Shown one piece after another: positions 13,449-64,000 of a DNA stretch of 64,000 nt (position 1 is the first letter of the stretch; each line of letters starts with the position of its first letter). The notes under the pieces were generated by a model. That model had not been told where the DNA came from and ran no database searches. It saw only the letters and a list, made by a program, of their open reading frames with translations. Source of the DNA: Blepharisma japonicum (Eukaryota > Ciliophora > Heterotrichea > Heterotrichida > Blepharismidae); NCBI GenBank assembly GCA_949751835.1, contig CATKHK010000076.1, forward strand, positions 1 to 64,000, read 5' to 3'. A program made the position numbers and the translations under genes.

Positions 13449-15743
13449 TTAATCGTCGTTCATCTGCAAGTGTTTCAATTTTTGAGCAAGAGCCAAGGCT
13501 AAATTAGTGTACTCTTCATTTTGTGACGTTAGTTCTGAAGCTTCTTTACATGATTTTACAACAAAATACTGAGTATTGTCCAAAGTTGGGATTATTTTTG
13601 GGACATGGCAGATTAAATCAGACCCAGATGTAAACCCTCCTTCAAGATCCGGGAAAATTCCAGCTTTTCCTAATCCCCAGCCAAAGATTTTATTATTATT
13701 GCTGAGGCAGATCACATGGTTTTCTCCACATGCAATACTCACTATAATTTCATTATTTAATCCTTCTACCATAGTTGGATTTTTTTGCTTCAGATTTTCT
13801 GAATTTTCAATGCCTAACTGCCCATGCTCCCCACTTCCCCACACAAAAACTTTACCATCTTCAGTAAGGCAAGCTGAAAAGTTTGCCCCAGCTGAAATTT
13901 GTGTTACAAAAATTCCACTTAGGCAGTTTACTTGTGTAATTTCTTTACTCATATAATCACTTGTTATATTTTCATCAGGAATACCTAATTGGCCATCTTC
14001 TGCTCAGCCAAATGCATAAATGCATCCTAATGTATCTAACAATAAAGTATGAGCTTCTCCACAGGCAGCTGATTTAATAAAAATATCTTGATCAGTGAAA
14101 TACTCTAATTTTACAGGTCGAAGCGATACATACCCTTGCTCGTCTCTATACAGGTCTATTGACGGAACTCCTAGCTGATTTGCGTCCCCTCGTCCTCATG
14201 TATATACGTCTCCATTATCAGTTAAAGCTACTGTATGATACCCTCCACATTCTACATATACAATAATTTCTCCAGATAAATCTCTTATGAGTTTTGGAAA
14301 AGGATAAGAATTTGTGCTTCCTTGGCCTAAACAGCCAGAGGCTCCATAGCCTCAGCTCATCACTTTTCCTGCAGTGGTTACAAGTGCACAGTGTTCAAAC
14401 CCGCAAGAAATTCAGCAAACTTCAGAAATTGCTATACTTTTGGTGATTTTTTCAGAAAGTAGTAAAGGTCGACTGCTGGACTTTAATTTATTATCTGCTG
14501 ATACTTTGCTTTGATCTTCTAAGTACGAAAATTCTATATTTAACGAAGAGTTAAAGCCAGAAAAGCACACAGAAGAAATAATTTCTAAAGTATTCAGGGC
14601 TTCTGTTTGCTCTTCGCTAAATGAAATATCTTTTGAAGCGCAAATTACAGCTTTTTTTAGCAGTGGAGAATAAGGGTCAGGCCATTTGATCCCAGGCTCA
14701 GTTTCTATAGTTTCTATAAAGTCTGAGACAGAAACAGAAGAACTTCCTATCAATTTTTGTTTGAGCTTTACTATTGAAGGCTTGCTGTGAATCTGGCTTA
14801 AAATATTTTTTGATGCTGAATATCTAACGGGGTAGCATTTTATTACTTGAGGTTTTCCTTCATCTGGAAAGGAAATGCAAGATTCATCAGTCTCAAGCTT
14901 CTCTTCTTCCGTTATTTGTGGACTCAAGCCGAATTTTTGTATAAGTGATAATTCGCTTGCCCCTCTAAATGGACAAGATCCTCGAATATCCCATTCAATT
15001 TCGCTATCCCCAAATTTTCCTTTGAAGGATTCATCTTCTGAGATTTCTTGGTTTATCACAGTTGATAATCTCATGTTAAGCAGTGACGCCCTTGCATTTG
15101 TGTCAATTATTGATCTGGCCAGTATTGAAGTGAGCGAACTTCTTGAGGAAAACTCTATATTTTTTTCTTCAATTTTTTCTTGAAAATCCCTGTGAATTTG
15201 TTCTATTGCTTCTTTGTCGAAGATATCAGTGTCAATTATCTGCTTATCCTCGCTAGAAGATCCATATTGGCTTGATAATGAATTATTGTCAAATAGTTGA
15301 TTATTTAAGCCAGATAAATTCAAATTATTAGAGTTCGCATAAACGCTGAGCTGAGATTCTTGCTCAAACGAATTAAGCGGAACATCTTCAATCTATTTAA
15401 AATTTACCCTGCCTTTTGAATGATTTTGAGAGTTTTGCTGATTAAATGGGCTTGTTTGGGCTAATATTTGTAAGGCGTTATTTATATCTATTTCGTTTGT
15501 AAAAATAAGCTCATTTGCTTTTATTGTAGATCGAGGATCAGGTGAAAGTTCTGAGCTGCTTTTTAAAGTTGGGTATAAAAGTAAAGGATCTATAAGCAGT
15601 TGCAAATAATTTTGGGGAAAAGAAACAACAGTTTTTAAGCCAGTGTAATTTAATCCTGCTTTAAGCAGATAAGTAGATAAAGAGTTACTAAAAGAATCAA
15701 TCGATCGCTGAATTGTTCAATTTGAGTAGCCTTGAGTATCCAT
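13449..15743 (-). CDS. RCC1-repeat protein with long disordered N-terminus
   Basis: A 759-residue protein after removing the 15-nt intron at 15393-15407. The N-terminal 440 residues are Ser/Glu-rich and low in structure. From about residue 445 to 690 there are four to five RCC1-type blades with repeated patterns such as CGFEHCALVT, WGYGASGCLGQG, CGGYHTVALTDNG, WGRGDANQLG, CGEAHTLLL, FGWAEDGQLG and WGSGEHGQLG. The Trp in FGWAEDG is encoded by TGA. RCC1 propellers act as Ran exchange factors or as protein-docking modules; with fewer than seven blades and a disordered half this is more likely a regulatory scaffold than true RCC1. It ends at TAA 13449-13451, only 20 bases from the start of the tRNA-binding gene. 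Confidence 0.85.
15393..15407 (-). other. 15-nt intron in the RCC1 gene
   Basis: GTAAATTTTAAATAG in the coding strand, phase 0. Left in, it would end the frame at its own final TAG; removed, the frame runs on for hundreds of codons on each side. A lies at position 10. Confidence 0.85.
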
Positions 15744-19339: not shown

Positions 19340-21508
19340 TTATTTATAATATTTTGACAAAACTTCTTGGAGTTTCTGCTTTTCTTTAGCAACATCTGCT
19401 TGAGCTTCTTGAATTTCCATGTCATAAGCTAGGCGATTTTGCTCTTCGTCTATATGTTTTTGTGCTTTTACTAAAATTCTATTATATAGTCTGTCAGAAA
19501 GATGAGAAATAAATGAATCCTTGACTTTGTGCATGACCTCTTTTTCAAATTCTTTTCCAACTTCTATCATTTCTCTACAGTTTTTGAACTCCAAAACCCA
19601 GTTATGCTTTTTTTGAAATTGAGAATTTTTCTGACTTTTGTCTTCCTTCAGCTTTCGCTCTAAAAAGATTTGAAATTTGTCTTCAAGAATTTTATTACAT
19701 TTTGCTTCAGTTTTAAATTTATTTTTCTCTTCAGCTCTTTTATTATATTCGCTTGATTTTCTGGCTGAGTCAAAACAATTTTCATTTTTTCTTGGAGTAA
19801 TTTGTGTACTTTTAGGCTTTATTGCTCGGGATTTATATGGCAATGGAGATACTGAATATACTTTATTTGATGGGGCGAGGATCTTTCTTACTGGACTCTG
19901 CTCAGTTTTAAGCTCAGACGAAAAATTTGGAGTATCATTATCATTGACTAGTGAAGGAATTTCAGGAGTAATTGAAATTCCAGATAAAATTTGTCGCTCC
20001 TTAGCAATATAGCCAGATTTTTGATAAAATCTTTGCAAGAGCGAAGATTTTGATGCTCCAGAATCGCTAGATAGTCGAGAAAATGAGCGAAAATTTTCGG
20101 ACCATTCAAAAGACGAAAATGAAGATTCATCGTAATAGACATAAGGACATTTTAGAGGATTATCTATGCACAAAGAATCCTGTACCGGAAGAAAGTTTGA
20201 ACTATCAGTTTCTATATGCTCATTAACTTCTTCTTGATTCGAAACTTTGATCTCATAGTATGCATAAGGGCATTTTAGAGGATTATCACCACATGAAGAA
20301 TTTTGTACTGGAAGAAAATTTGAACTATCGGTTTCAATATGCTCATTATTTTCTTCTACTTCTTTTAAGTCTTTAAGTGTAAACAATTTCTCATCAATAA
20401 TTTCAGGTGTTTGTGTGATTTCAAGAATATCCTGCTTATTTATATCTTCTACCATAATTTCAATGATATTTTCTACTTTTACTTCTACTTCTTTTTCTTG
20501 CTCTATGCTTTCTATTAAATTTTTATCAGAATTTGTAATTGTCTGAATATCTTCGTCGCATTGGGCCTGAGGGGCATCATTTTCATTAGTTTGAATTTCC
20601 TTTTTCGCATCTTCTTCGATTTTAATCGAACTGAAAATTCCTTTTAATAATTTTATCATTTCTGATGTTTTTGAATTTGAAGGCAATTTCGATAAATCAG
20701 CTTTTAAGAAATACTGGTGAGATTTTATGATATTTGCTATATAATTATTACCCTTTGAAATTCTTTTTCCTTTAAGAAACCCTGGCAATTTCTTTAGCAT
20801 TTGTACGATATGACTTAAATCATTGAAATAGGTCGTCATTTCTTTTTTCATATGTTCTTCGTTTGTTATTTTAATTTTTGGATCTATTTCACATAATAAA
20901 TAAGCGATACATCCTAAAATTTTATTCAAATCATGGCTATTTTTGGATTTTTTTCGATCCTAAATAAATATTACACTTATATTTTTTGATTTGATTGAAG
21001 ATACAGTTTGTTGATATTGCTGATTTTCATTTTTAGCTATAGAACAATTTTTTGATAAGAGACTTACTTTTTCTTCATTTGGCCAATTCAAACTTGCTTT
21101 TCGTCTATTAAAATTAGAAGCTGAGTTTCTTATCCCCTCAGTGCTTTTATTAATCTTTCTTAATTGCTGGATATCGACAGAATTTACTTTGGAATGAGTT
21201 TTCTTTTTATTAAAATTTGGAGACTGATCAACAGTTTTAGAGGTTTTTTCTTTTTCCTGACAATATTTCGTTTGTGCTTTATTTAGACCTATTTGCATTT
21301 TATTGAAGTTATGATTCAAGCTTCCACTACGGGAATGGCTTGTTGATGTTCGTGAAGAATTTGCTCGATTTGATAATAAAACACTTTCTTTATTAATTGC
21401 ATTTTCAAGTAATTTCTGTTTTGTATGTGAATAAATATTTGCAGGAAAATCACTTGATAAATGCAAAAGATTTGAGCTTAAACTTGTCGTTAGGCGAGTG
21501 GAGTCCAT
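19340..21508 (-). CDS. Charged orphan protein with a 41-residue tandem repeat
   Basis: A 717-residue protein made by joining two exons across a 15-nt intron at 20960-20974. The first 190 residues are Ser/Asn/Lys-rich. Residues 195-300 are helical; the centre is strongly acidic; around residues 385-470 a 41-residue unit starting NEHIETDSSNFLPVQ and containing DNPLKCPY occurs twice in tandem. The last 180 residues form a long charged coiled coil (FLERKLKEDKS, EIQEAQADVAKEKQKLQ). I recognise no family; the composition resembles cytoskeletal or basal-body proteins of ciliates, but that is a guess. Without the intron the gene would appear as two ORFs, the second lacking any ATG near its start, which strengthens the join. 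The start is 220 bases from the divergent sorting nexin. Confidence 0.78.
20108..20353 (-). repeat. In-frame tandem duplication, two 123-bp units
   Basis: Units at about 20231-20353 and 20108-20230, period 123 bases (41 codons). The copies differ at scattered bases, and NEHIETDSSNFLPVQ is identical in both proteins. Confidence 0.85.
20960..20974 (-). other. 15-nt intron in the repeat-containing orphan
   Basis: GTAATATTTATTTAG, phase 0. Its last TAG is the only stop separating two long frames. A at position 10. Confidence 0.82.
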
Positions 21509-21728: not shown

Positions 21729-23033
21729 ATGGAAGAGATAAAAATAAGTCAAGAAGACACCCAAAGAAAATCCATAGCCATTAGCAATCCATTATCATCT
21801 TCAGATTCTCGGCCAATTAGCAAATCAACAGCTCATACAGACGAAAATTTATCTGAAGAATATATTACTGAAATTTCTAATAAAAATTCCGAAAGTGTTC
21901 TTTATCTTGCTGAGCCAGAGTTAGATAATAAAATAGGAGTTTCTGTCTGCAGCTTCAATACAAAATCAACTTTGATGAAAAAACAAGTATTTTATATAAT
22001 TCAAGGCCATGATTCCTCAGGCTCTTATGAAGCACATAGGAATTATAAAGACTTTCGTAAATTAAGAAAAATTTTACTTCACAATTGGCCTGGGTGTTAT
22101 ATTCCTCCAGTCCCTCATAAACAAAATATTGTAAACGCTACATAGAGTAATTTTAGCCCAAGATCTATTGAGAAAATGATGAAGCTTTACAATTTATTCA
22201 TCAGTAGAATCGTCTCTTATAGCTACCTCTATGAGTCTGATGAATTTCAGCATTTTATTAGAAACCCAGGAGCTTATCGAAAATTGTTACTTAGAAAAGA
22301 GCCTTATTTAGACATTTCCAAAAAATTCAATGAAATTTTCCATGATTATTCAAAAGAAACTCGCAGCGATGCGAATGAAAAAATCCTAAACGAAGGAAAG
22401 ACTTTTTTTAAAATCGGTGTTGAGGCTTTAGAGAAATTTGAAAGCATATGCAAAATAAATGTTGATTATTTCGAAAGCTTTGAAGTTCAACTCACTCAGC
22501 TCATGCATGGAATAAACCATCTAAGCAAAATTTATCAGGAGCAATTTGGTAGCGTTAATCTGGAGATTTCTTCACGTGATATTTATTCAAATCCCTTTTT
22601 TGTATTGCTTGATTGAGTCAGATGAGAAATTATTGATTTAAAAGCAATGATCGAAGCAGTTGATACAAAAAAAGAAATTGATAAACGTCAACTAGAGACT
22701 GAGAAAAGATTGGAAGCAGAGAAGACACACATTGTAAAGTTGCAGACTGGAAAAAAGTTTTTATCTCAAATATTTTCGACAAATTCTCGAGAAAAAAACT
22801 CGCAAATTATTGAGAGCCATATAGACGAAATGCAAAAAGAAGTTATTGCATTATCAAATATCAGTTCAATTTCAGCAGCAAAGCTAGCAAATTTAGATTT
22901 ACCTAAGTTTAAGCAGTTAAAAGCTCAGAAATATGAAGTGATTTTGAGGACATTTGCTGGTAGCTCTGTAAGTGAATTTGAAAATATGATAAATCAAGTA
23001 AAAGAGATTGAGAGCGGGCTAGATAATAAATAA
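21729..23033 (+). CDS. PX-BAR sorting nexin
   Basis: A 429-residue protein with one 15-nt intron (22131-22145) and two closely spaced TGA Trp codons (22614 and 22623). Residues 55-165 form a PX domain that binds phosphoinositides: a basic beta-hairpin (VFYIIQGHD), the YKDFRKLRKILL helix and a Pro-rich loop IPPVPHKQ, with the intron cutting just after this loop, then FISRIV and LYESDEFQHFIRNP. From about 190 to the end comes a long helical region typical of a BAR domain (ANEKILNEGKTFFKIG, RQLETEKRLEAEK). The layout is that of retromer-type or endosomal sorting nexins (SNX1/2/5, SNX4, yeast Vps5), which tubulate endosomes. The ATG at 21729 is the first in frame. Confidence 0.88.
22131..22145 (+). 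other. 15-nt intron in the sorting nexin gene
   Basis: GTAAACGCTACATAG, phase 0, inside the PX domain; removal joins the Pro-rich loop to the rest of the domain. A at position 10. Confidence 0.9.
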
Positions 23034-23349: not shown

Positions 23350-23989
23350 TTAAATCATCTGTGAATTCCATGTGTGCATCATATCATGCAATCCTTTATT
23401 TTCTAAGGCTAAAATGGCATTTTCTCTATTAAGAGTTTCTAATTTTTTTGTAAGTTCCAATAATAATTGGTCTCGTTTTGAGTCTTTATTTATAATCTCA
23501 AGCATTATTGTCCTTTCCACCATTAGAGTTTCCTGAAACTATGTTGAATTTACCTTAAGAAGCATAAGTTCACTAGCATTGCCAATCATACGCTTCCAGG
23601 GTTCAATTTTGCATTCACCTTCTTGAAAATCTGTTAATTGTGATTGCTCTTCTAAATTGATTGAAGGAATTGTTCGGATCCTGGAATCTTTTGGGTGCTA
23701 CTTATATTTATACCATAATCGGCGTTGTCGATATTAGTGGGTCATCAATGTTAATTGATTTGCTTGGTTTTGGTGTGTATTTATCTTCTATAACTTCATT
23801 TCTAGGCTTACAAAAAGAGTGGGTTTCTGGGATATGGATTTGTTGATACAATGGCAATGCCATTGAATATCTTCTATCTTCATTAAAAGAATTTGCATCA
23901 AAATTGTAATTTAGTTGGATATTGACACCATTAGAGGCATTTCTATCAAAATCTGAATTAAATAATCCTTGCACTTTCCTGGTTCCCAT
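23350..23989 (-). CDS. Small orphan protein with two micro-introns and a C-terminal coiled coil
   Basis: A 202-residue protein built from three exons around a 16-nt intron (23698-23713) and a 15-nt intron (23539-23553). Exon one gives a polar N-terminus (MGTRKVQGLFNSDFDRNA), exon two an acidic stretch with CKIEPWKRMIGNA, and exon three a helical coiled coil (LELTKKLETLNRENAILALE). No family is recognised. The spliced length is an exact number of codons and both junctions restore a frame that is otherwise closed, which is the main support. The ATG at 23989 is the first in frame. It ends at TAA 23350-23352. Confidence 0.75.
23539..23553 (-). other. 15-nt intron in the small orphan
   Basis: GTAAATTCAACATAG, phase 0, ending in a TAG that would stop translation if retained. 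A at position 10. Confidence 0.8.
23698..23713 (-). other. 16-nt intron in the small orphan
   Basis: GTATAAATATAAGTAG. The only 16-nt intron found here; it is needed to restore the frame and has the A six bases from the 3' end, as in the 15-nt introns. Confidence 0.8.
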
Positions 23990-29450: not shown

Positions 29451-30008
29451 ATGATGAACAATCCTTCAAAAAATTTCAACTTAATTAAAGAAGGTTCTGA
29501 TTGCTCTATCTCTAAGAGAAAATACAATTCTTTAGTCACAAATAAGCCTCCGTTGCCGAAAATTAACAAGTCAAAATCTGATATAGGTGCTTATTCTTCG
29601 AAAAAGTGCTTTCAAGAGACTTCTGTTAACCAAAACTCTAATCTTCCTCTAAAAAAACTTGTTTCCACGAGAGTGGTCTTTGTTGGAGAGATGAAAATAT
29701 TTTCTGATAAAAAGGATAAAATCTGCGGAAATGATATAAAAATGTCAAATAGCGAGGTTTCGCAGAACAATTTATCTCTATATAAAAATTTACTAGAATC
29801 CAAGGTATCTATAATTTAGTTTTCTGAGATGATGAAGTCTCACAAACTTTTGCTTTTGGAATTTTTAAACAATGAAGAGAATGAGCAGAAATTCGAGCTA
29901 AGAAGCAAATTTAATTACTTAGTAAAGGAAAATAATTCACTTTCTATAGAAAATGAAAAGTTAAAAAGACTGGTTTTTCGAATCAATAGTTATGATCCTT
30001 ATAATTAA
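29451..30008 (+). CDS. Small coiled-coil orphan
   Basis: A 180-residue basic protein with one 15-nt intron (29805-29819). The first exon is Lys/Ser/Asn-rich and probably disordered (KPPLPKINKSKSDIG). The second exon, about 63 residues, is helical with heptad-like spacing (LLLLEFLNNEENE, IENEKLKRLVFR). No family recognised. The first in-frame ATG is 29451. The stop lies 9 bases before the ATG of the DnaJ gene, so both transcripts must have very short untranslated regions or overlap. Confidence 0.68.
29805..29819 (+). other. 15-nt intron in the coiled-coil orphan
   Basis: GTATCTATAATTTAG, phase 0, ending in an in-frame TAG. A at position 10. Confidence 0.8.
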
Positions 30009-30017
30009 AATATTAAT

Positions 30018-31022
30018 ATGATTCTAATTTATTTGCTACTTTTGGCTTTATCTAAGGCAAGTAGTGATTATTATGCTGTTTTAGGGATTCCAGAAGATGC
30101 AGATGATAAAGAAATCCAAAAGGCATTCAGGAAACTCAGCAAGTACCACCCTGATAGAAATCCTGGAGACAAAGAAACCCATGCAAAATACATCGAGATC
30201 ACAAAAGCATACGAGGTTTTGTCAGACCCAGACAAAAGACAAATCTATGATATTTATGGAGAAATGGGAGTAAATGATCCCGAGCGATTCAAGAAAAAGC
30301 GTGGAAATACTTCTAGATTCAATATAGAAGTCGATTTGGCAGATGTTTATAGTGGAGCTACCAAAGAAATCACTATAAAAAGAAACGAAATCTGCAAAAA
30401 ATGCAAAGGGACAGGAGCCAAAGACAAGAAAATTGCCTTATGCAGTGGCTGCGGTGGAAGAGGAACAAGGACTACCCAGCCAAATGGAGGAATGCGGATT
30501 CCATGTGAGAGGTGTGGGATGCGCGGATATGTAACTTTTATGTAGTTTATTTCTGAAAAATGCCAAGCTTGCAAAGGTCAGAAAGTAGTCTCAGGAATGA
30601 AGACTTTTACCGTTGAAATAGAGCCAGGTATGGATAGTGGAAGTGAAATAAAATTTGATGGCCAAGGAGAGCAAAATCCAGAATGGTTTCCTGGTGACAT
30701 AGTTTTTTCTCTTAGAGTTAAAAATCATTATAGATTTGAAAGGCAAGGAAACGATTTACATGCTACCGTCAGGCTTACACTTAGAGAGTCTTTATTAGGA
30801 TATAGTAAAGAAATCACTCACTTAGACGGACATATAGTTAAGATTGAGCATGAAGGAATTACACAGCCACAATCAGAGAAAATCATAGAAGATGAAGGAA
30901 TGCCAATGACAGAGATGAATTCACATAGAGGGAAGCTGATAGTGAAATTTGTGGTGGATTATCCAGAAAAGCTAACGACTGAACAGCAAAACCTTATCAA
31001 GCAGCTACTACCCGTTAATTAA
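30018..31022 (+). CDS. ER-type DnaJ (Hsp40) with zinc-finger domain
   Basis: A 329-residue co-chaperone with a 15-nt intron at 30531-30545. A signal peptide (MILIYLLLLALSKASS) leads directly into the J domain (residues 18-85), whose HPD motif appears as KYHPDRNPGD. A zinc-binding region with four CxxCxGxG-like units follows: CKKCKGTG, CSGCGGRG, CERCGMRG and, beyond the intron, CQACKGQK. The C-terminal substrate-binding beta domains include DLHATVRLTLRESLLG. The layout, without a Gly/Phe-rich spacer and with a signal peptide, fits ERdj3/Scj1-type chaperones of the ER lumen that stimulate BiP. No KDEL-like tail is seen (it ends LLPVN), so retention may depend on partners. Splicing is certain: the intron splits the zinc region. 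Confidence 0.93.
30531..30545 (+). other. 15-nt intron in the DnaJ gene
   Basis: GTAACTTTTATGTAG, phase 0, between the third and fourth Cys units of the zinc domain. Removal is needed to link two parts of one conserved domain. A at position 10. Confidence 0.95.
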
Positions 31023-37643: not shown

Positions 37644-39650
37644 TTATATATTTATAACTTTGCTAGGATTTTCTGGAGATTTCTCAAGAAATGAAATACA
37701 CTTTCGAGGAAGTTCACTTTTCGGAGTCATTAATGCTCCAATGAATTCCTATGTGAATCTTACATCAATAAATAATGACCTTGGAATTAATTCACAAAAG
37801 AGAGCAAAATCTATATTGTCTAATAGCTTATGCCTTTTTCCAAAAATACTTGAAAGGAATTCATTAACTAGGCTGCATATATCTTACATTTGGCACTCAT
37901 CATAAATTGGAGTGTTTTGAGGTAGAGACTCAGACATATCATTAATCTCATCACATGTGAGTATCCCATCCATATTTCTATCATACAAATCAAAAGCAAA
38001 TTTATTCTGATCTATACTATTTCCTTTGAAAATTTCATTAATTTTTGATAAAAAGCTCATTTTCGTAATATCAGTTCGATTTTTACCTGCCAAGATTCCA
38101 TAGAATAGCTTTGATACGTAATCGCATTTAAAGCCAAAAATTGTGGGCCACACTTCAATAGTCGATTTCAGAGAAATCATTTTTTCTTTACGAAATAAAG
38201 GACATTTCAGCATTTCGAATTTCTCCAGCACCATTTCGCTTTCTGCCAATTCAAATTTATGCATCAGCTCATCTAGATCTAAATAATATTGGTATCTTGG
38301 GTCCGATTTATAGGAATCTTTTAACTCTTCTTGATAGCGAATATCATATACAATGTCTTGGCTCAGTCTTCTTGTATGGCATGAAGACTCAGGCTTTAAT
38401 AAGGAAGAATTGATATTATAGCCTGTCAAATAATATATGATGTCTTGAAAAATCTGAGGCTTTCCGATGAAGCCTATTTTTAAAAAATCTTCAACAGTAA
38501 GAGCTTCAGGCTTTGTAGGATGGACATAAGGCACCCTTTTGGCTTCTTCATCTCCACTTGAAGCAGTACTGTGCCTCCTTATATGTGTTTTAGGTATTTT
38601 TTGGTTGTGGCCTTTTCTTGATTGTTTGTTGACCATTGATTCTCTTATCCTAACAATATCTTGATCATATAGATTACTACAATCTAAAGAAATTGCATAA
38701 TAGGCGTCATGAGTGCATATATATTTATCTTTGTTGAAATCAAAAAGCTCAAAGCAAAATTTCAAAATTTTGTTGTCATTGGAATTTATGAACTTTTCTA
38801 TTATCGAAGTTCAAGAATCAAAATTTTGATTTCCTTCGATCACAATTGCTTTTGCTATTACTTCAACCATTTCTTGAGGATATCGCTTCAATAGCCACTC
38901 CTTCAAAGCTTCATTAGTAACTCTTTGATCTCGATGAGAGCTTTCTTGTGTTTTTGATATTTTTAAAAAAATCTCATATAGTTCTTTGCTGGTTTTGTCC
39001 AACGGGTACTTATATACTTTTATTCTTAATGTCGAAGAGCGTCGCGAATTGGAACTTGCTCTTGATGCTGACCCTCTTCGGCTGTGCTTTATACTTTTCA
39101 AAGAATTTTGGCTTGTACTATTATCCTGCTTCACCTGAGGAGTCTTCAGTATCATATCTAGCACATTAATTTTCCCATCACTATCAGGCAACTTTTTATA
39201 AGCGTTAACAGAATGAACCTCAATACTTTTCAGTCTGCTTGGTTCCTTTAAATTAAAAGACATTCTGCTCGTGTTTATAGGAGTATTTATCTTCGTTAAA
39301 ATGTCTTGCTTGATAGCTTGCTCCTTAAATTGTTTATATATCTCAGGATGTTTCAGCAGACCTAATAAAAACTTCTGATAGAACAATAAAGTCTTATCAA
39401 TTGGAGGGAGAGTTAAAGACTCCCTCGGTGAAATTAAAGGATTATAGTGCTTTCCAATTAGCTGCGTTTTGTTATGAATTCTTGATTTTCCTGATGTCAT
39501 ATATGGGATTTCGTCATCATCTATAACTTCAAGAGGGTCTTCAGCGATATCCGTTAGTTTTCTAATTTTGCAGATTGGCTGGGAAACTTCAGGGACTTCT
39601 GTATTCAAAATTTGGATCTTTGGTGGCTTTTTCAGATTTAAATCTTCCAT
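37644..39650 (-). CDS. EF-hand protein with two C-terminal micro-introns
   Basis: A 658-residue protein. The N-terminal 270 residues are basic and Ser-rich (HSRRGSASRASSNSRRSS) with a helical segment. Two EF-hands follow, one with FDFNKDKYICTHD near residue 300 and one with LYDRNMDGILTCDEI near 570; calcium ligands Asp, Asn and Asp are visible in both loops. A TGA Trp at 38811-38813 joins two frames. The 3' end carries two 15-nt introns (37873-37887 and 37749-37763); without splicing the protein ends at NTPIYDECQM, with splicing it adds about 70 residues beginning ILVNEFLSSIFGKRHK. Start ATG at 39650 is the first in frame; upstream only TTG. Role unknown; probably a calcium sensor. Confidence 0.82.
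37749..37763 (-). other. 15-nt intron, last one of the EF-hand gene
   Basis: GTAAGATTCACATAG, phase 0, ending in a TAG. Both introns are needed to reach the TAA at 37644-37646. A at position 10. Confidence 0.78.
37873..37887 (-). other. 15-nt intron near the 3' end of the EF-hand gene
   Basis: GTAAGATATATGCAG, phase 2. It contains the TAA that would otherwise end the protein. A at position 10. Confidence 0.8.
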
Positions 39651-55005: not shown

Positions 55006-55572
55006 ATGACAGATGACATGGGAGAAGCCTTAACAATCACCGCCCTTGTGCTGGTATCCCTCTTTTGCATGGGATGCTGCCTGGTTTTATTTCGAAAAAT
55101 GTACAAAAGCGCCCAACGACAACGACTTGTATATGATCAATATTTCATCAGCTACATGCGAGCCAGAAACTATGCTGTGCTGCCTGAAAACTCTGTTATT
55201 ATTGAAGATGAGCTAGAAAGATGATTTCCACGAGCTCCTTTTAACCGGCAAATGGTGCAAGTGAGCGAAAGCACGTGTTGCATTTGCTTTGAAGAGTAAA
55301 ATTTATACAGCTTTGCAGACGATGCTTCTGTGAGGCAACTTACATGCAAGCATTTATTCCATGTTAAATGCATTGATGACTGATTTCAACGCAGGGAAGC
55401 ACCAATATGCCCACTTTGTAAAGTCAATCCATTCCTTCCTGTGGAGCAGCCTCCTATCCCACAAGTAAATGAACACCCAGAAGCCCTGCGGGGAGAAACT
55501 GAGCAGGGAGATCATGCTGCAATTTTATCAGGAAGGGATCTGGAAGACGAAGTTTCGTTTACTTTGCCATAA
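55006..55572 (+). CDS. Membrane-anchored RING-H2 E3 ligase
   Basis: A 183-residue protein with one 15-nt intron (55296-55310). A single membrane segment (residues 9-31, TITALVLVSLFCMGCCLVLF) is followed by a cytoplasmic part and a RING-H2 finger: CCICFED, then after the intron LTCKHLFHVKCIDDWFQRR and CPLCK. The intron lies just after the first Cys pair. Trp codons TGA occur at 55222 and within the IDDWF motif, where Trp is highly conserved in RING-H2 fingers. The acidic Pro-rich tail ends SFTLP. Likely an ER or endosomal ubiquitin ligase with an E2 partner; substrate unknown. The stop is 32 bases before the next ATG. Confidence 0.9.
55296..55310 (+). other. 15-nt intron in the RING-H2 gene
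   Basis: GTAAAATTTATACAG, phase 2. Removal joins the two halves of one RING domain. A at position 10. Confidence 0.93.
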
Positions 55573-61175: not shown

Positions 61176-64000
61176 ATGATAAGAATTTGACTCTTCCTTT
61201 TCTTAAGACCCGTTTTTTCTCAAACATTTACTCTAATTCCCACAACTGGGACACCTCCAGGTGAAAGGCAATACCACATTATTGATTTATATGAAAAAGA
61301 CAATTCCCTAGTCACATTTGGAGGCAATCAAGGAGTTTCAAGACTTTATAATGATGTATGGAAATTTTCACTGTCGGACTCACGCTGATATGAACTTCAA
61401 GCATCTTCTCAAATGACTCCTTGTAAGCACTAAGCAGCACAAAGGTACAATCTAGGAGGTTTCGTTGACTCAAATAATGATTATCTCTATGTATTTGGTG
61501 GAAGTTCTGCCAATGGACCTCAGAATGATATGTGGCAGTTTGATTTAGTTAGCTATCAGTGGATGATTATATCCCAGAGTGGAAATACTCCAACCCCTAG
61601 GTCTCGCTTTGCATATGCACATTATAAAGACAAAAATGATAATAAGCTGAAATTTGCTATTTATGGAGGAACTTTGTCAACAGGCTATGATAACAGTTTA
61701 TATATGTAATAGATAATTAGATTTGATGTGGAAAGTACAACTTGGTCTCTTCAAAGTTCAGGAGGCGTTTCAGTGCCAAAATTAAACGCACCCACAATCC
61801 TATACTGAAGTGGATATATTTACCTCGCTGGAGGGCAAGGAGTTCATGGAACTACTTATGAGTACAATCGCAACTTTTTCAGATATGACTTGGCCAATAG
61901 TAAGTGGGAAGATCTAACAAGTAGTTCTAGCTCTTATAACTATAGGTATCTTACTGGAAGCGCTATATACAATGATGAATTTTATTTGCTTTTTGGCTGG
62001 TCTGATCTTATAGGAAAAGATCAATCAAATATTATGAAAGTAAGCTTAACAGGATCAAGCTATAGTTGGTCTAATGTAACAATAGTAGAAGATGAAAATT
62101 GAAGCATGATTCCTCGAGACTCTTATGCATTTTTTAGTAACAGCAGCGGTGTTGTTTATATATTTGGAGGCTATAGTTCAAGCTATAATGTAACGATTAT
62201 GAACAATTTAATTAAACTTGATCTAACTAGCTCAAAAATCAAATATACAATTTTAAGCTATGAATTTACAAGCCCTAGCCCTAGGAAAAGTCATTCATTG
62301 TGTTCCTCTGAAGCGGCATTATACTTATTCGGAGGCCAAAATGGAAATAACTATTATAATGATGTATGGATGCTGGACCCAGAAAATCCGAATTCATGGC
62401 AATCAATTCTGACTAATGGTGATATTCCATCTGCAAGATCAGGGCATGCTTCTGATTCTCAAGGCGACATAGTCGTCATATTTGGCGGATATGACGGAAC
62501 CTCATATTTGAATGACTTGTATTATTTAAACCTGATAACTAATAGCTGAAGTAAAGTCATCGCAAGCTCTACAGATTTGCCTGCAGGCCGGCTTGAAGCC
62601 TGTATGAAGGTTTACTTGCCTTATGTTTTCATTTTTGGAGGAAAAACTGAATCTGGAATTACCAATGACTTGTGGCTATATAATACAGGGACAAATGTTT
62701 ATACACTTTTATATGAAGTTGCCTTAGGGAATCGTCCTTTGCCAGTTTACGGGCATACGTGTGAGTTAACAGCTGATATATATGGGAATATCCTTTTTTA
62801 TACAATGCTAGGATCAACTGATGGAGAGCAACCTATTGGCAGTGTTGATGTTTATAATATGACTTTGAAACATTGGGTGAATTTGCATCTTGACGAAGGC
62901 GGTATCAATGCAAGAGCCAACGCTGCAGTGAAGCTTAATAAATATAACGAAGTTGGTGTCCTAGGTGGACAAGCATGAGGAACAGATCTAATGCCTAGCA
63001 TCTATGTTCTTAATCTAGATACGAATACGATTACTTCTCAAAACTCCATGCAAGACTATTTCTACTCATCTGCATCTACTTACTATAAGAAAAGCTTTTA
63101 TATTCAAGGAGGAGGGTCGGCTGCTGGGGAAGCAATGAGAGCATTTTTGGCACAAAGCAGCTTCATAAAAGTTGAGCTTGCTTGTGATACGTCCACAAAT
63201 ACTTCATGTCACTGGACTTGCAGCCCTGGAACTTATATTCAAAATAATGCTTGTGTGCCATGCCCTGAAGGAACCTATAACCCTACCTATGGCGCCACTT
63301 CTTGCATCAACTGTCCATCAGGAACATTTAATCCTGTAAAAGGTGCGAATACAGCTTATCAATGCTATCCGTGTGATTCAAGTACTTACAATTCATTTGA
63401 AGGCTCAGCTTCATGTCGAGCATGCCCTGTTAATAAATACTGCCCCGTTGGAAGTTCGAATCCTATTGAGACTGACTCATTCAGCACATATTCCTCAACT
63501 CAGCCATCATTATTTGATACCTCTTCTTATAACTCTGACTCTGATGAAGCTGTTAACGCTATGATAATTGCAGTTTGCTTGCTTTTCTTCATTATTTTTA
63601 TTCTATTTCAGTCCATCGCTATTTTTAGGGACAAGCTGGAAGGACTCGATCTCTACAAAGAAGAGCACAACTATCAACTTTTCCAAGTTATGATAAGAGT
63701 TGGCACCAAACTTGGAGGGACTTTTACAATATTTTTCCTGGTTGCTGCAGTTATTTTAATTTGCGATGCATGAATTGTGTATGCCAAAAATAACATATAT
63801 GAAGACAAATCGCTTGTGCCACTTGTAGCTTTGGAAAATGAGCTGACTGATTTCCCTGCAACAGTGAATATCGAAGCTGTTTTGTATAGATATGGAGGAA
63901 ACTGTGTGGATAACGGTAAGTGTGAGTCTTCGCTGCTTAAAACGCTTAATGAGATCTCTTATACTTGGATGGAAATGAAGTGCAGTTTATCTCAAGGAGA
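61176..64000 (+). CDS. Kelch-repeat, Cys-rich membrane protein, 3' end cut by the window
   Basis: At least 931 residues after removal of two 15-nt introns (61423-61437 and 61706-61720). A signal peptide (MIRIWLFLFLRPVFSQ, its Trp a TGA) leads to a beta-propeller of kelch repeats over residues 20-640: LVTFGGNQG, YVFGGSSANG, FAIYGGTLS, IYLAGGQG, YIFGGYSS, YLFGGQNG, VIFGGYDG and FIFGGKTE, each followed by a Trp motif such as DVWKF or NDMWQF. Then a Cys-rich GCC2/GCC3-like segment (CPEGTYNPTYGA, CPSGTFNPVKGA, CRACPVNKYCP) and at least two membrane segments (MIIAVCLLFFIIFILFQS; TIFFLVAAVILIC). TGA codes for Trp at many places. Probably a surface receptor or adhesion protein; the remainder lies beyond 64000. 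Confidence 0.9.
61423..61437 (+). other. 15-nt intron in the kelch gene
   Basis: GTAAGCACTAAGCAG, phase 1. It contains the TAA that would end the frame after the first kelch unit. A at position 10. Confidence 0.9.
61706..61720 (+). other. Second 15-nt intron in the kelch gene
   Basis: GTAATAGATAATTAG, phase 2. Retention gives TAA-TAG; removal links SLYI to FDVESTTW, a normal kelch end. A at position 10. Confidence 0.9.

What the first reader, a model, noticed from the sequence alone, without database searches (positions are those of the whole stretch)
30531..30545. Twelve micro-introns of 15-16 nt with an invariant A six bases from the 3' end
Eleven 15-nt and one 16-nt introns were found by frame repair: 15393, 20960, 22131, 23539, 23698 (16 nt), 29805, 30531, 37749, 37873, 55296, 61423 and 61706. 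Every one starts GTA, ends in AG, and has A at position 10 of 15 (or 11 of 16). The base at position 13 is T or C in each. That A is the only candidate branch point common to all, leaving five bases to the acceptor. Such geometry strains the normal lariat and spliceosome models.
Basis: seen in the sequence. Interest (0 to 1): 0.75.

Follow-up and report, generated by a model that had tools for sequence, protein, structure and literature searches.

The report
Known 15-base introns of heterotrich ciliates
These twelve 15- or 16-base introns with a fixed adenosine look real, but they match the normal introns of heterotrich ciliates (Stentor, Blepharisma), whose fixed branch-point adenosine is already in print.

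Summary
In detail: all 12 stretches exist and fit GTA…A(–6)…YAG. Each carries an in-frame TAA/TAG, and removing it joins two open frames. A blind search (GT…AG, no interior model, 333 kb of this genome) gave a spike at 15 nt. All 36 calls with length fixed at 15 had GTA and A10, 26 of them outside the window. Genome-wide, the word GTAATTTTTATATAG occurs 78 times; with any other base at position 10 it occurs 5 times.

It is not new. PMC9505925 reports for Stentor coeruleus 8173 of 8806 introns of 15 nt, 8005 of them with the branch A at position 10, and 16-nt introns with it mostly at 11. PMC9942806 reports 15/16-bp introns and UGA=Trp in Blepharisma stoltei. This genome also reads UGA as Trp. 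U1, U2, U5, U6, SF1, ISY1 and CWC25 were found.

The five-base branch-to-acceptor spacing equals that of Yarrowia (PMC2483917). Only the donor-to-branch spacing is extreme. Open: U2 complementarity is no better than in shuffled introns, so how the A is chosen is unproven. A divergent second U1 gene was noticed.

The parts
15393..15407 (-). 15-nt intron GTAAATTTTAAATAG, phase 0, in an RCC1-repeat protein gene (13449-15743)
   Evidence: blind
20960..20974 (-). 15-nt intron GTAATATTTATTTAG, phase 0, gene 19340-21508 (not scanned for families)
   Evidence: blind
22131..22145 (+). 15-nt intron GTAAACGCTACATAG, phase 0, inside the PX domain of gene 21729-23033
   Evidence: blind; PX domain 52.4 bits spliced, 46.4 retained
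23539..23553 (-). 15-nt intron GTAAATTCAACATAG, phase 0, gene 23350-23989
   Evidence: not called in the blind 15-nt run; its gene model also holds the 16-nt intron
23698..23713 (-). 16-nt intron GTATAAATATAAGTAG, A at 11, phase 0, gene 23350-23989
   Evidence: blind (L=16)
29805..29819 (+). 15-nt intron GTATCTATAATTTAG, phase 0, gene 29451-30008 (no Pfam family at E 0.01)
   Evidence: blind
30531..30545 (+). 15-nt intron GTAACTTTTATGTAG, phase 0, in the zinc-finger domain of a DnaJ gene (30018-31022)
   Evidence: blind; DnaJ central domain 33.5 bits spliced (cut-off 32.7), 27.4 retained; DnaJ_C unchanged, 125.0 and 124.9
37749..37763 (-). 15-nt intron GTAAGATTCACATAG, phase 0, EF-hand-like gene 37644-39650
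   Evidence: EF-hand models below cut-off; blind
37873..37887 (-). 15-nt intron GTAAGATATATGCAG, phase 2, same EF-hand-like gene
   Evidence: blind
55296..55310 (+). 15-nt intron GTAAAATTTATACAG, phase 2, inside the RING domain of gene 55006-55572
   Evidence: blind; zf-RING_2 48.9 bits spliced, 37.1 retained
61423..61437 (+). 15-nt intron GTAAGCACTAAGCAG, phase 1, in a Kelch-repeat protein gene (61176-63998, model open at the window's end)
   Evidence: blind
61706..61720 (+). 15-nt intron GTAATAGATAATTAG, phase 2, same Kelch-repeat gene
   Evidence: blind

Best explanation
The 12 stretches are ordinary U2-type spliceosomal introns of a heterotrich ciliate, most like Blepharisma. Donor GUA(A) is recognised by U1 and then U6. 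A10 (A11 in 16-nt introns) is the branch nucleophile that attacks G1 and leaves a 10- or 11-nt lariat loop with a 5-nt tail. The exon end then attacks after the nearest YAG. Shown here: the frame-restoring stretches, the fixed A, its genome-wide single-base contrast in one word, and the presence of canonical U1, U2, U5, U6, SF1, ISY1 and CWC25 genes. Inferred: that they are removed from RNA, that A10 is the branch nucleotide, that U2 bulges it, and that small changes in active-site proteins (CWC25 plug, ISY1 N-terminus) make room for the tight loop. The last point is the published conjecture for Stentor.
For: All 12 restore open frames and carry in-frame stops. Blind search: length spike at 15 nt and A10 in 36 of 36; in phases 0 and 2 it is 34 of 34, and none of those 34 needs A10 for its stop. 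GTAATTTTTATATAG, the commonest Stentor intron word in PMC9505925, occurs 78 times here against 5 for the three other bases at position 10. Retaining the intron as five residues lowers the PX, zf-RING_2 and DnaJ zinc-finger scores. U2 keeps GUAGUA in all three copies, one U1 keeps ACUUACCU, U6 (reverse complement of the match) keeps ACAGAGA. SF1, ISY1, CWC25 and U5 found. UGA is Trp here (238 TGA beside 411 TGG in long frames), as in Blepharisma (PMC9942806). The same intron anatomy is published for Stentor (PMC9505925). Bases around the A fit the human-like yUnAy (consensus recalled): y 25/36, U 27/36, A 36/36, y 24/36.
Against: No RNA reads or lariat data were available. Pairing with U2 in the canonical register averages 2.94 of 6, against 3.07 for shuffled introns, so U2 complementarity does not explain the site. 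For the Kelch gene (first 272 residues, both introns kept at once) three models score higher with the introns retained (PF24681 150.8 against 134.4; PF24981 93.6 against 91.9; Kelch_6 57.7 against 56.9), while Kelch_1, Kelch_3, Kelch_4, Kelch_HCF and Kelch_FKB95 score lower; in the RING protein seven of the nine models listed both ways fall and two below-cut-off models rise. The exonic depletion of GTAN9YAG is not specific to A10 or to 15 nt.
Confidence: 0.9

Rival explanations
1. Base 11, not A10, is the bulged branch nucleotide; A10 is conserved because it pairs with U of the U2 GUAGUA box and T9 with the next A.
For: Of the positions 7-13 tried as the bulge, 11 gives the most U2 pairs when G-U counts (3.86 of 6; position 10 gives 2.94). 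With Watson-Crick pairs alone position 7 is highest (2.81) and 11 second (2.58).
Against: Base 11 is T18 A8 C6 G4 of 36; branch nucleotides are nearly always A (recalled). No other helix position is invariant, and none of the 5 genome-wide exceptions at position 10 is G, which could wobble-pair with U.
Confidence: 0.04
2. The 15-mers are kept in the mRNA and the UAG/UAA inside is read through or bypassed.
For: Eleven of the 12 are multiples of three; this genome reassigns one stop codon.
Against: The 16-nt case shifts the frame. The 15-nt spike appears with GT...AG ends and not with ten decoy end pairs. Scores of the PX, zf-RING_2 and DnaJ zinc-finger models fall with the insert. Tiny introns of Blepharisma stoltei were identified from mapped RNA-seq (PMC9942856, passage).
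Confidence: 0.02
3. They are tiny germline-limited segments (IES) removed from DNA rather than introns removed from RNA.
For: Ciliates excise intragenic DNA precisely (PMC9942856, passage). Whether this assembly is somatic was not tested.
Against: GT...AG ends, fixed A at -6 and a 15-nt spike, as in published Stentor introns (PMC9505925). Most Blepharisma IESs are far longer (median 255 bp, PMC9942856, passage) and TA-bounded (recalled).
Confidence: 0.02

Closest known systems
Stentor coeruleus 15/16-nt introns (PMC9505925; PMC10946202 credits Slabodnick et al. 2017, not held, with the branch-point suggestion)
   Same: Length 15 (8173 of 8806) and 16 nt, GUA start, AG end, A at 10 of 15 and mostly at 11 of 16, AU-rich, major-spliceosome snRNAs; the commonest Stentor word recurs 78 times in this genome.
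   Different: Here UGA codes Trp; Stentor's standard code is recalled. A10 in 36 of 36 blind calls here, in 8005 of 8173 15-nt introns in Stentor.
Blepharisma stoltei tiny introns (PMC9942806, passages; details in its SI, not held)
   Same: Predominantly 15 and 16 bp, AT 66%, UGA=Trp, gene-dense; 18% multi-exon genes (PMC10946202, Table 1; here 9 of 38 window models).
   Different: Published assembly 41 Mb; this genome 45.2 Mb in 224 contigs. Species identity was not tested.
Yarrowia lipolytica introns (PMC2483917, passages)
   Same: Fixed short branch-to-acceptor spacing: ACTAAC plus 2 nt plus AG puts five bases after the branch A, as here.
   Different: Strong ACTAAC branch motif and rather long introns.
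Nyctotherus and Paramecium short introns (PMC2633312, passages)
   Same: GTA...TAG borders (Nyctotherus); introns that are multiples of three tend to carry in-frame stops.
   Different: 21-29 and 20-33 nt; no branch motif found in Nyctotherus.

Membership tests
Heterotrich tiny spliceosomal introns | Length 15 or 16 nt, sharply peaked | tested here: met
   Blind search, 17 of 27 at 15 nt; 36 calls at L=15 against 0-8 at eight other lengths. The 16-nt class rests on one good blind case.
Heterotrich tiny spliceosomal introns | GUA start, AG end, A at -6 | tested here: met
   12 of 12 in the window; 36 of 36 blind at 15 nt; 78 against 5 genome-wide for one word
Heterotrich tiny spliceosomal introns | Removed from RNA | not testable with these tools
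   No RNA reads; inferred from frames and domains
U2-type (major) spliceosomal introns | Major snRNAs present | tested here: met
   U1, U2, U5, U6 over Rfam cut-offs; U4 not searched
U2-type (major) spliceosomal introns | Branch A paired with U2 GUAGUA | tested here: inconclusive
   GUAGUA kept, but intron complementarity 2.94 of 6 against 3.07 shuffled
U12-type introns | U12 snRNA present | tested here: inconclusive
   No match, but no control genome rang either
Blepharisma nuclear genome | UGA = Trp, UAA/UAG stop | tested here: met
   TGA 238, TGG 411 in frames of at least 250 codons opened by TAA/TAG only
Blepharisma nuclear genome | Marker-gene identity | not tested
   None of the sequence collections offered holds named eukaryote genomes

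The most novel reading that the evidence does not exclude
In these introns the branch adenosine is chosen by a spacing rule (tenth base from the donor, five before the intron end) rather than by complementarity to U2. A10 is invariant in the sample, while U2 pairing around it in the canonical register is no better than in shuffled introns.
Probability: 0.3. Interest if true: 0.6.

Novelty: already known. Interest (0 to 1): 0.25.

Why it matters
It supports in another heterotrich genome, by a blind search and a genome-wide single-base contrast, that the shortest spliceosomal introns reported depend on one fixed adenosine. How a spliceosome forms a 10-nt loop and finds that A without clear U2 complementarity is open and testable, but the phenomenon itself is in print for Stentor (PMC9505925, 2022; PMC10946202 dates the branch-point suggestion to 2017).

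Tried and rejected
U2 complementarity as the reason for A10: the canonical register is not above shuffled introns. A register that skips one U2 base scored higher (3.58 against 3.08, reached by 10 of 2000 shuffles with G-U counted; 687 of 2000 with Watson-Crick pairs only), but it is one of several registers tried, so exploratory only.

Avoidance of cryptic introns in exons: GTAN9YAG is depleted in coding sequence (38 against a codon-shuffle mean of 69), but about equally with A10 (ratio 0.59) and without (0.53), and motif depletion is seen at several other lengths, so it is not specific.

Second U1 as a specialist for tiny introns: by Watson-Crick pairs 17 of 36 introns fit it better, 9 the normal U1, 10 tie. 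By duplex energy the split is 16, 18 and 2. Coding GTA sites split the same way by pairs (1070, 599, 603), so no specialisation is shown.

Selection for in-frame stops: all 22 phase-0 calls have T13, against 9 of 14 in the other phases, and uncalled phase-0 motif sites (5) are near the codon-shuffle mean (4.58). The blind caller needs stops, and P ranges from 0.001 to 0.5 with the T13 fraction assumed, so suggestive at most.

U12: nothing found, uninformative. A covariance model of the two U1 genes was built but never used in an answered search.

Full report
Observation. All 12 listed stretches are in the sequence as described, six on each strand. Frames were read with TGA as Trp, because frames of at least 250 codons hold 238 TGA beside 411 TGG. 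In that code every stretch interrupts a gene with an in-frame TAA or TAG, and its removal joins two open frames: phase 0 in eight, phase 2 in three, phase 1 in one.

Not circular. Its coding model was trained on long frames of the same sequence. It found 27 introns, 17 of them 15 nt long. Ten decoy end pairs gave 15-39 calls, with 0-2 at 15 nt; in total calls and total score the decoys were not worse (two scored higher), so only the length spike is informative (penalty -8). With length fixed at 15 it called 36 introns, and all 36 begin GTA and have A at position 10. Ten of these lie in the window and 26 outside. Lengths 12-14, 16-18, 20 and 21 gave 0-8 calls each (penalty -4). At the loosest penalty (-3) it was 38 calls at 15 nt, 38 with A10 and 37 with GTA, and 0-12 at the other lengths. 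Of the window's eleven 15-nt introns the blind run found ten, missing 23539. The 16-nt class rests on few cases: of 5 blind calls at L=16 only the window's own has both GTA and A at -6. The caller depends on in-frame stops. In phases 0 and 2 A10 is present in 34 of 34, and none of these needs A10 for its stop; both phase-1 calls do. Mean A frequency at positions 5-9, 11 and 12 is 0.25.

Genome-wide test. The bare motif GTAN6ANNYAG is not in excess over its backwards-read control (11,450 against 12,806 sites), since most such sites are chance. The word GTAATTTTTATATAG, given in PMC9505925 as the commonest Stentor intron, occurs 78 times (control 2). With C, G or T in place of A10 it occurs 5 times (control 4).

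Protein evidence. With the intron kept as five residues (X at the stop), the PX domain falls from 52.4 to 46.4 bits, zf-RING_2 from 48.9 to 37.1, and the DnaJ zinc-finger domain from 33.5 to 27.4, below its cut-off of 32.7; DnaJ_C does not change (125.0, 124.9). Two below-cut-off RING-type models rise with the insert. The Kelch gene, of which the first 272 residues were given with both introns kept at once, is mixed: five models fall, while PF24681, PF24981 and Kelch_6 rise. Of the other five intron genes, four were scanned: RCC1 repeats and EF-hands below cut-off were named, two had no family. Gene 19340-21508 was not scanned.

Machinery. The searches found three U2 genes, one U6, one U5 and two U1-like genes, one of the latter below the cut-off; U4 was not searched. 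GUAGUA is kept in all three U2 copies and ACUUACCU in one U1 (the second U2 read on its minus strand). U6, read as the reverse complement of the match, holds ACAGAGA. SF1, ISY1 and CWC25 domains are present. CWC25 begins MGLKFLNKKSW, so it keeps one of the three glycines that PMC9505925 gives for the human plug (Gly2-4). Its match to human CWC25 starts only at residue 8. ISY1 residue 10 aligns with residue 5 of a worm-type ISY-1 chain (8ro0), which leaves a five-residue longer, unmatched N-terminus. Both resemble the Stentor differences in PMC9505925. Start codons are predicted.

Mechanism. The simplest account is normal major-spliceosome splicing with A10 as nucleophile, giving a 10-nt loop and a 5-nt tail. 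Positions 1-4 (GUAA, A4 in 32 of 36) keep the donor, while the usual G5 preference (recalled) is absent (A12 T12 G8 C4). I infer that bases 5-9 are taken by the branch helix and cannot also serve U6. The A10 context fits the degenerate human-like yUnAy (recalled). Counting pairs with U2 does not help: the canonical register gives 2.94 of 6 against 3.07 in shuffles, and the register with base 11 bulged gives 3.86. I rank the base-11 reading low, because base 11 is mostly not A and A10 is more invariant than any pairing base. A spacing rule for A10 is the boldest reading left.

Known or new. PMC9505925 (abstract, passages and parts 1-2 of 3 of its Results read) reports this anatomy in Stentor: 8173 of 8806 introns of 15 nt and 633 of 16 nt; branch A at position 10 in 8005 and at 11 in 442; stringently conserved GUA; the 10-11-nt lariat with a 5-nt tail; and the steric question. 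PMC10946202 (passages) credits Slabodnick et al. 2017 with the branch-point suggestion; that paper is not held. PMC9942806 (passages) reports predominantly 15- and 16-bp introns and UGA=Trp in Blepharisma stoltei. PMC11441545 (passages) gives about 95% 15 bp and the rest 16 bp in heterotrichs. PMC10946202 finds a conserved A near the 3' end in Stentor, two Euplotes and Oxytricha but not in the other species it compared. On geometry, PMC2483917 (passages) gives Yarrowia a branch-AG distance of 2 nt after ACTAAC, which is five bases from the A to the intron end, exactly as here. PMC11291888 (abstract and passages) gives 46 nt as the minimal productive human donor-to-branch length, so the donor side is the extreme one. 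The organism was not identified by a marker gene; Blepharisma is inferred from code, base composition and introns.

Verdict. It is the normal, published intron of heterotrich ciliates.

Noticed in passing
L026:1501-1661 (G000:C17:419159-419319): A second U1 gene, 89% identical to the normal one, with 5' end UCAAUUACAAUGG instead of UCACUUACCUGG, which would pair with AUU|GUAAUU. It keeps the upstream GTCCCATAAnAAA box, the Sm-like site AAATTTCTGG (label recalled) and the downstream CCTTCAATAA, but stem-loop I folds differently and it scores below the Rfam cut-off (61.8 against 69.5). No specialisation for tiny introns was shown; one library search for ciliate U1 snRNA variants listed one paper, on diplonemids.
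   Followed up: partly
L023:1501-1693 (G000:C33:149801-149993): A diverged third U2 gene (130.8 bits against 161.2 and 156.9) that keeps GUAGUA and the upstream box.
   Followed up: no
blind-called 15-nt introns, e.g. 30531-30545: In-frame stop inside the intron in 35 of 36; the other has the stop across the 5' junction. All 22 phase-0 introns end TAG, against 9 of 14 with T13 in other phases. The caller favours introns with stops, so this only hints at selection for retained-intron stops.
   Followed up: partly
upstream of the snRNA genes in L021, L022 (minus strand), L023, L025, L026: Shared box TCCC(A/T)TAA(C/T)AAA about 55 bases upstream of the five U1 and U2 genes, probably a promoter element (inferred); U6 has GTCCCATAA at -62, U5 has TCCCATAAATAA upstream.
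   Followed up: no
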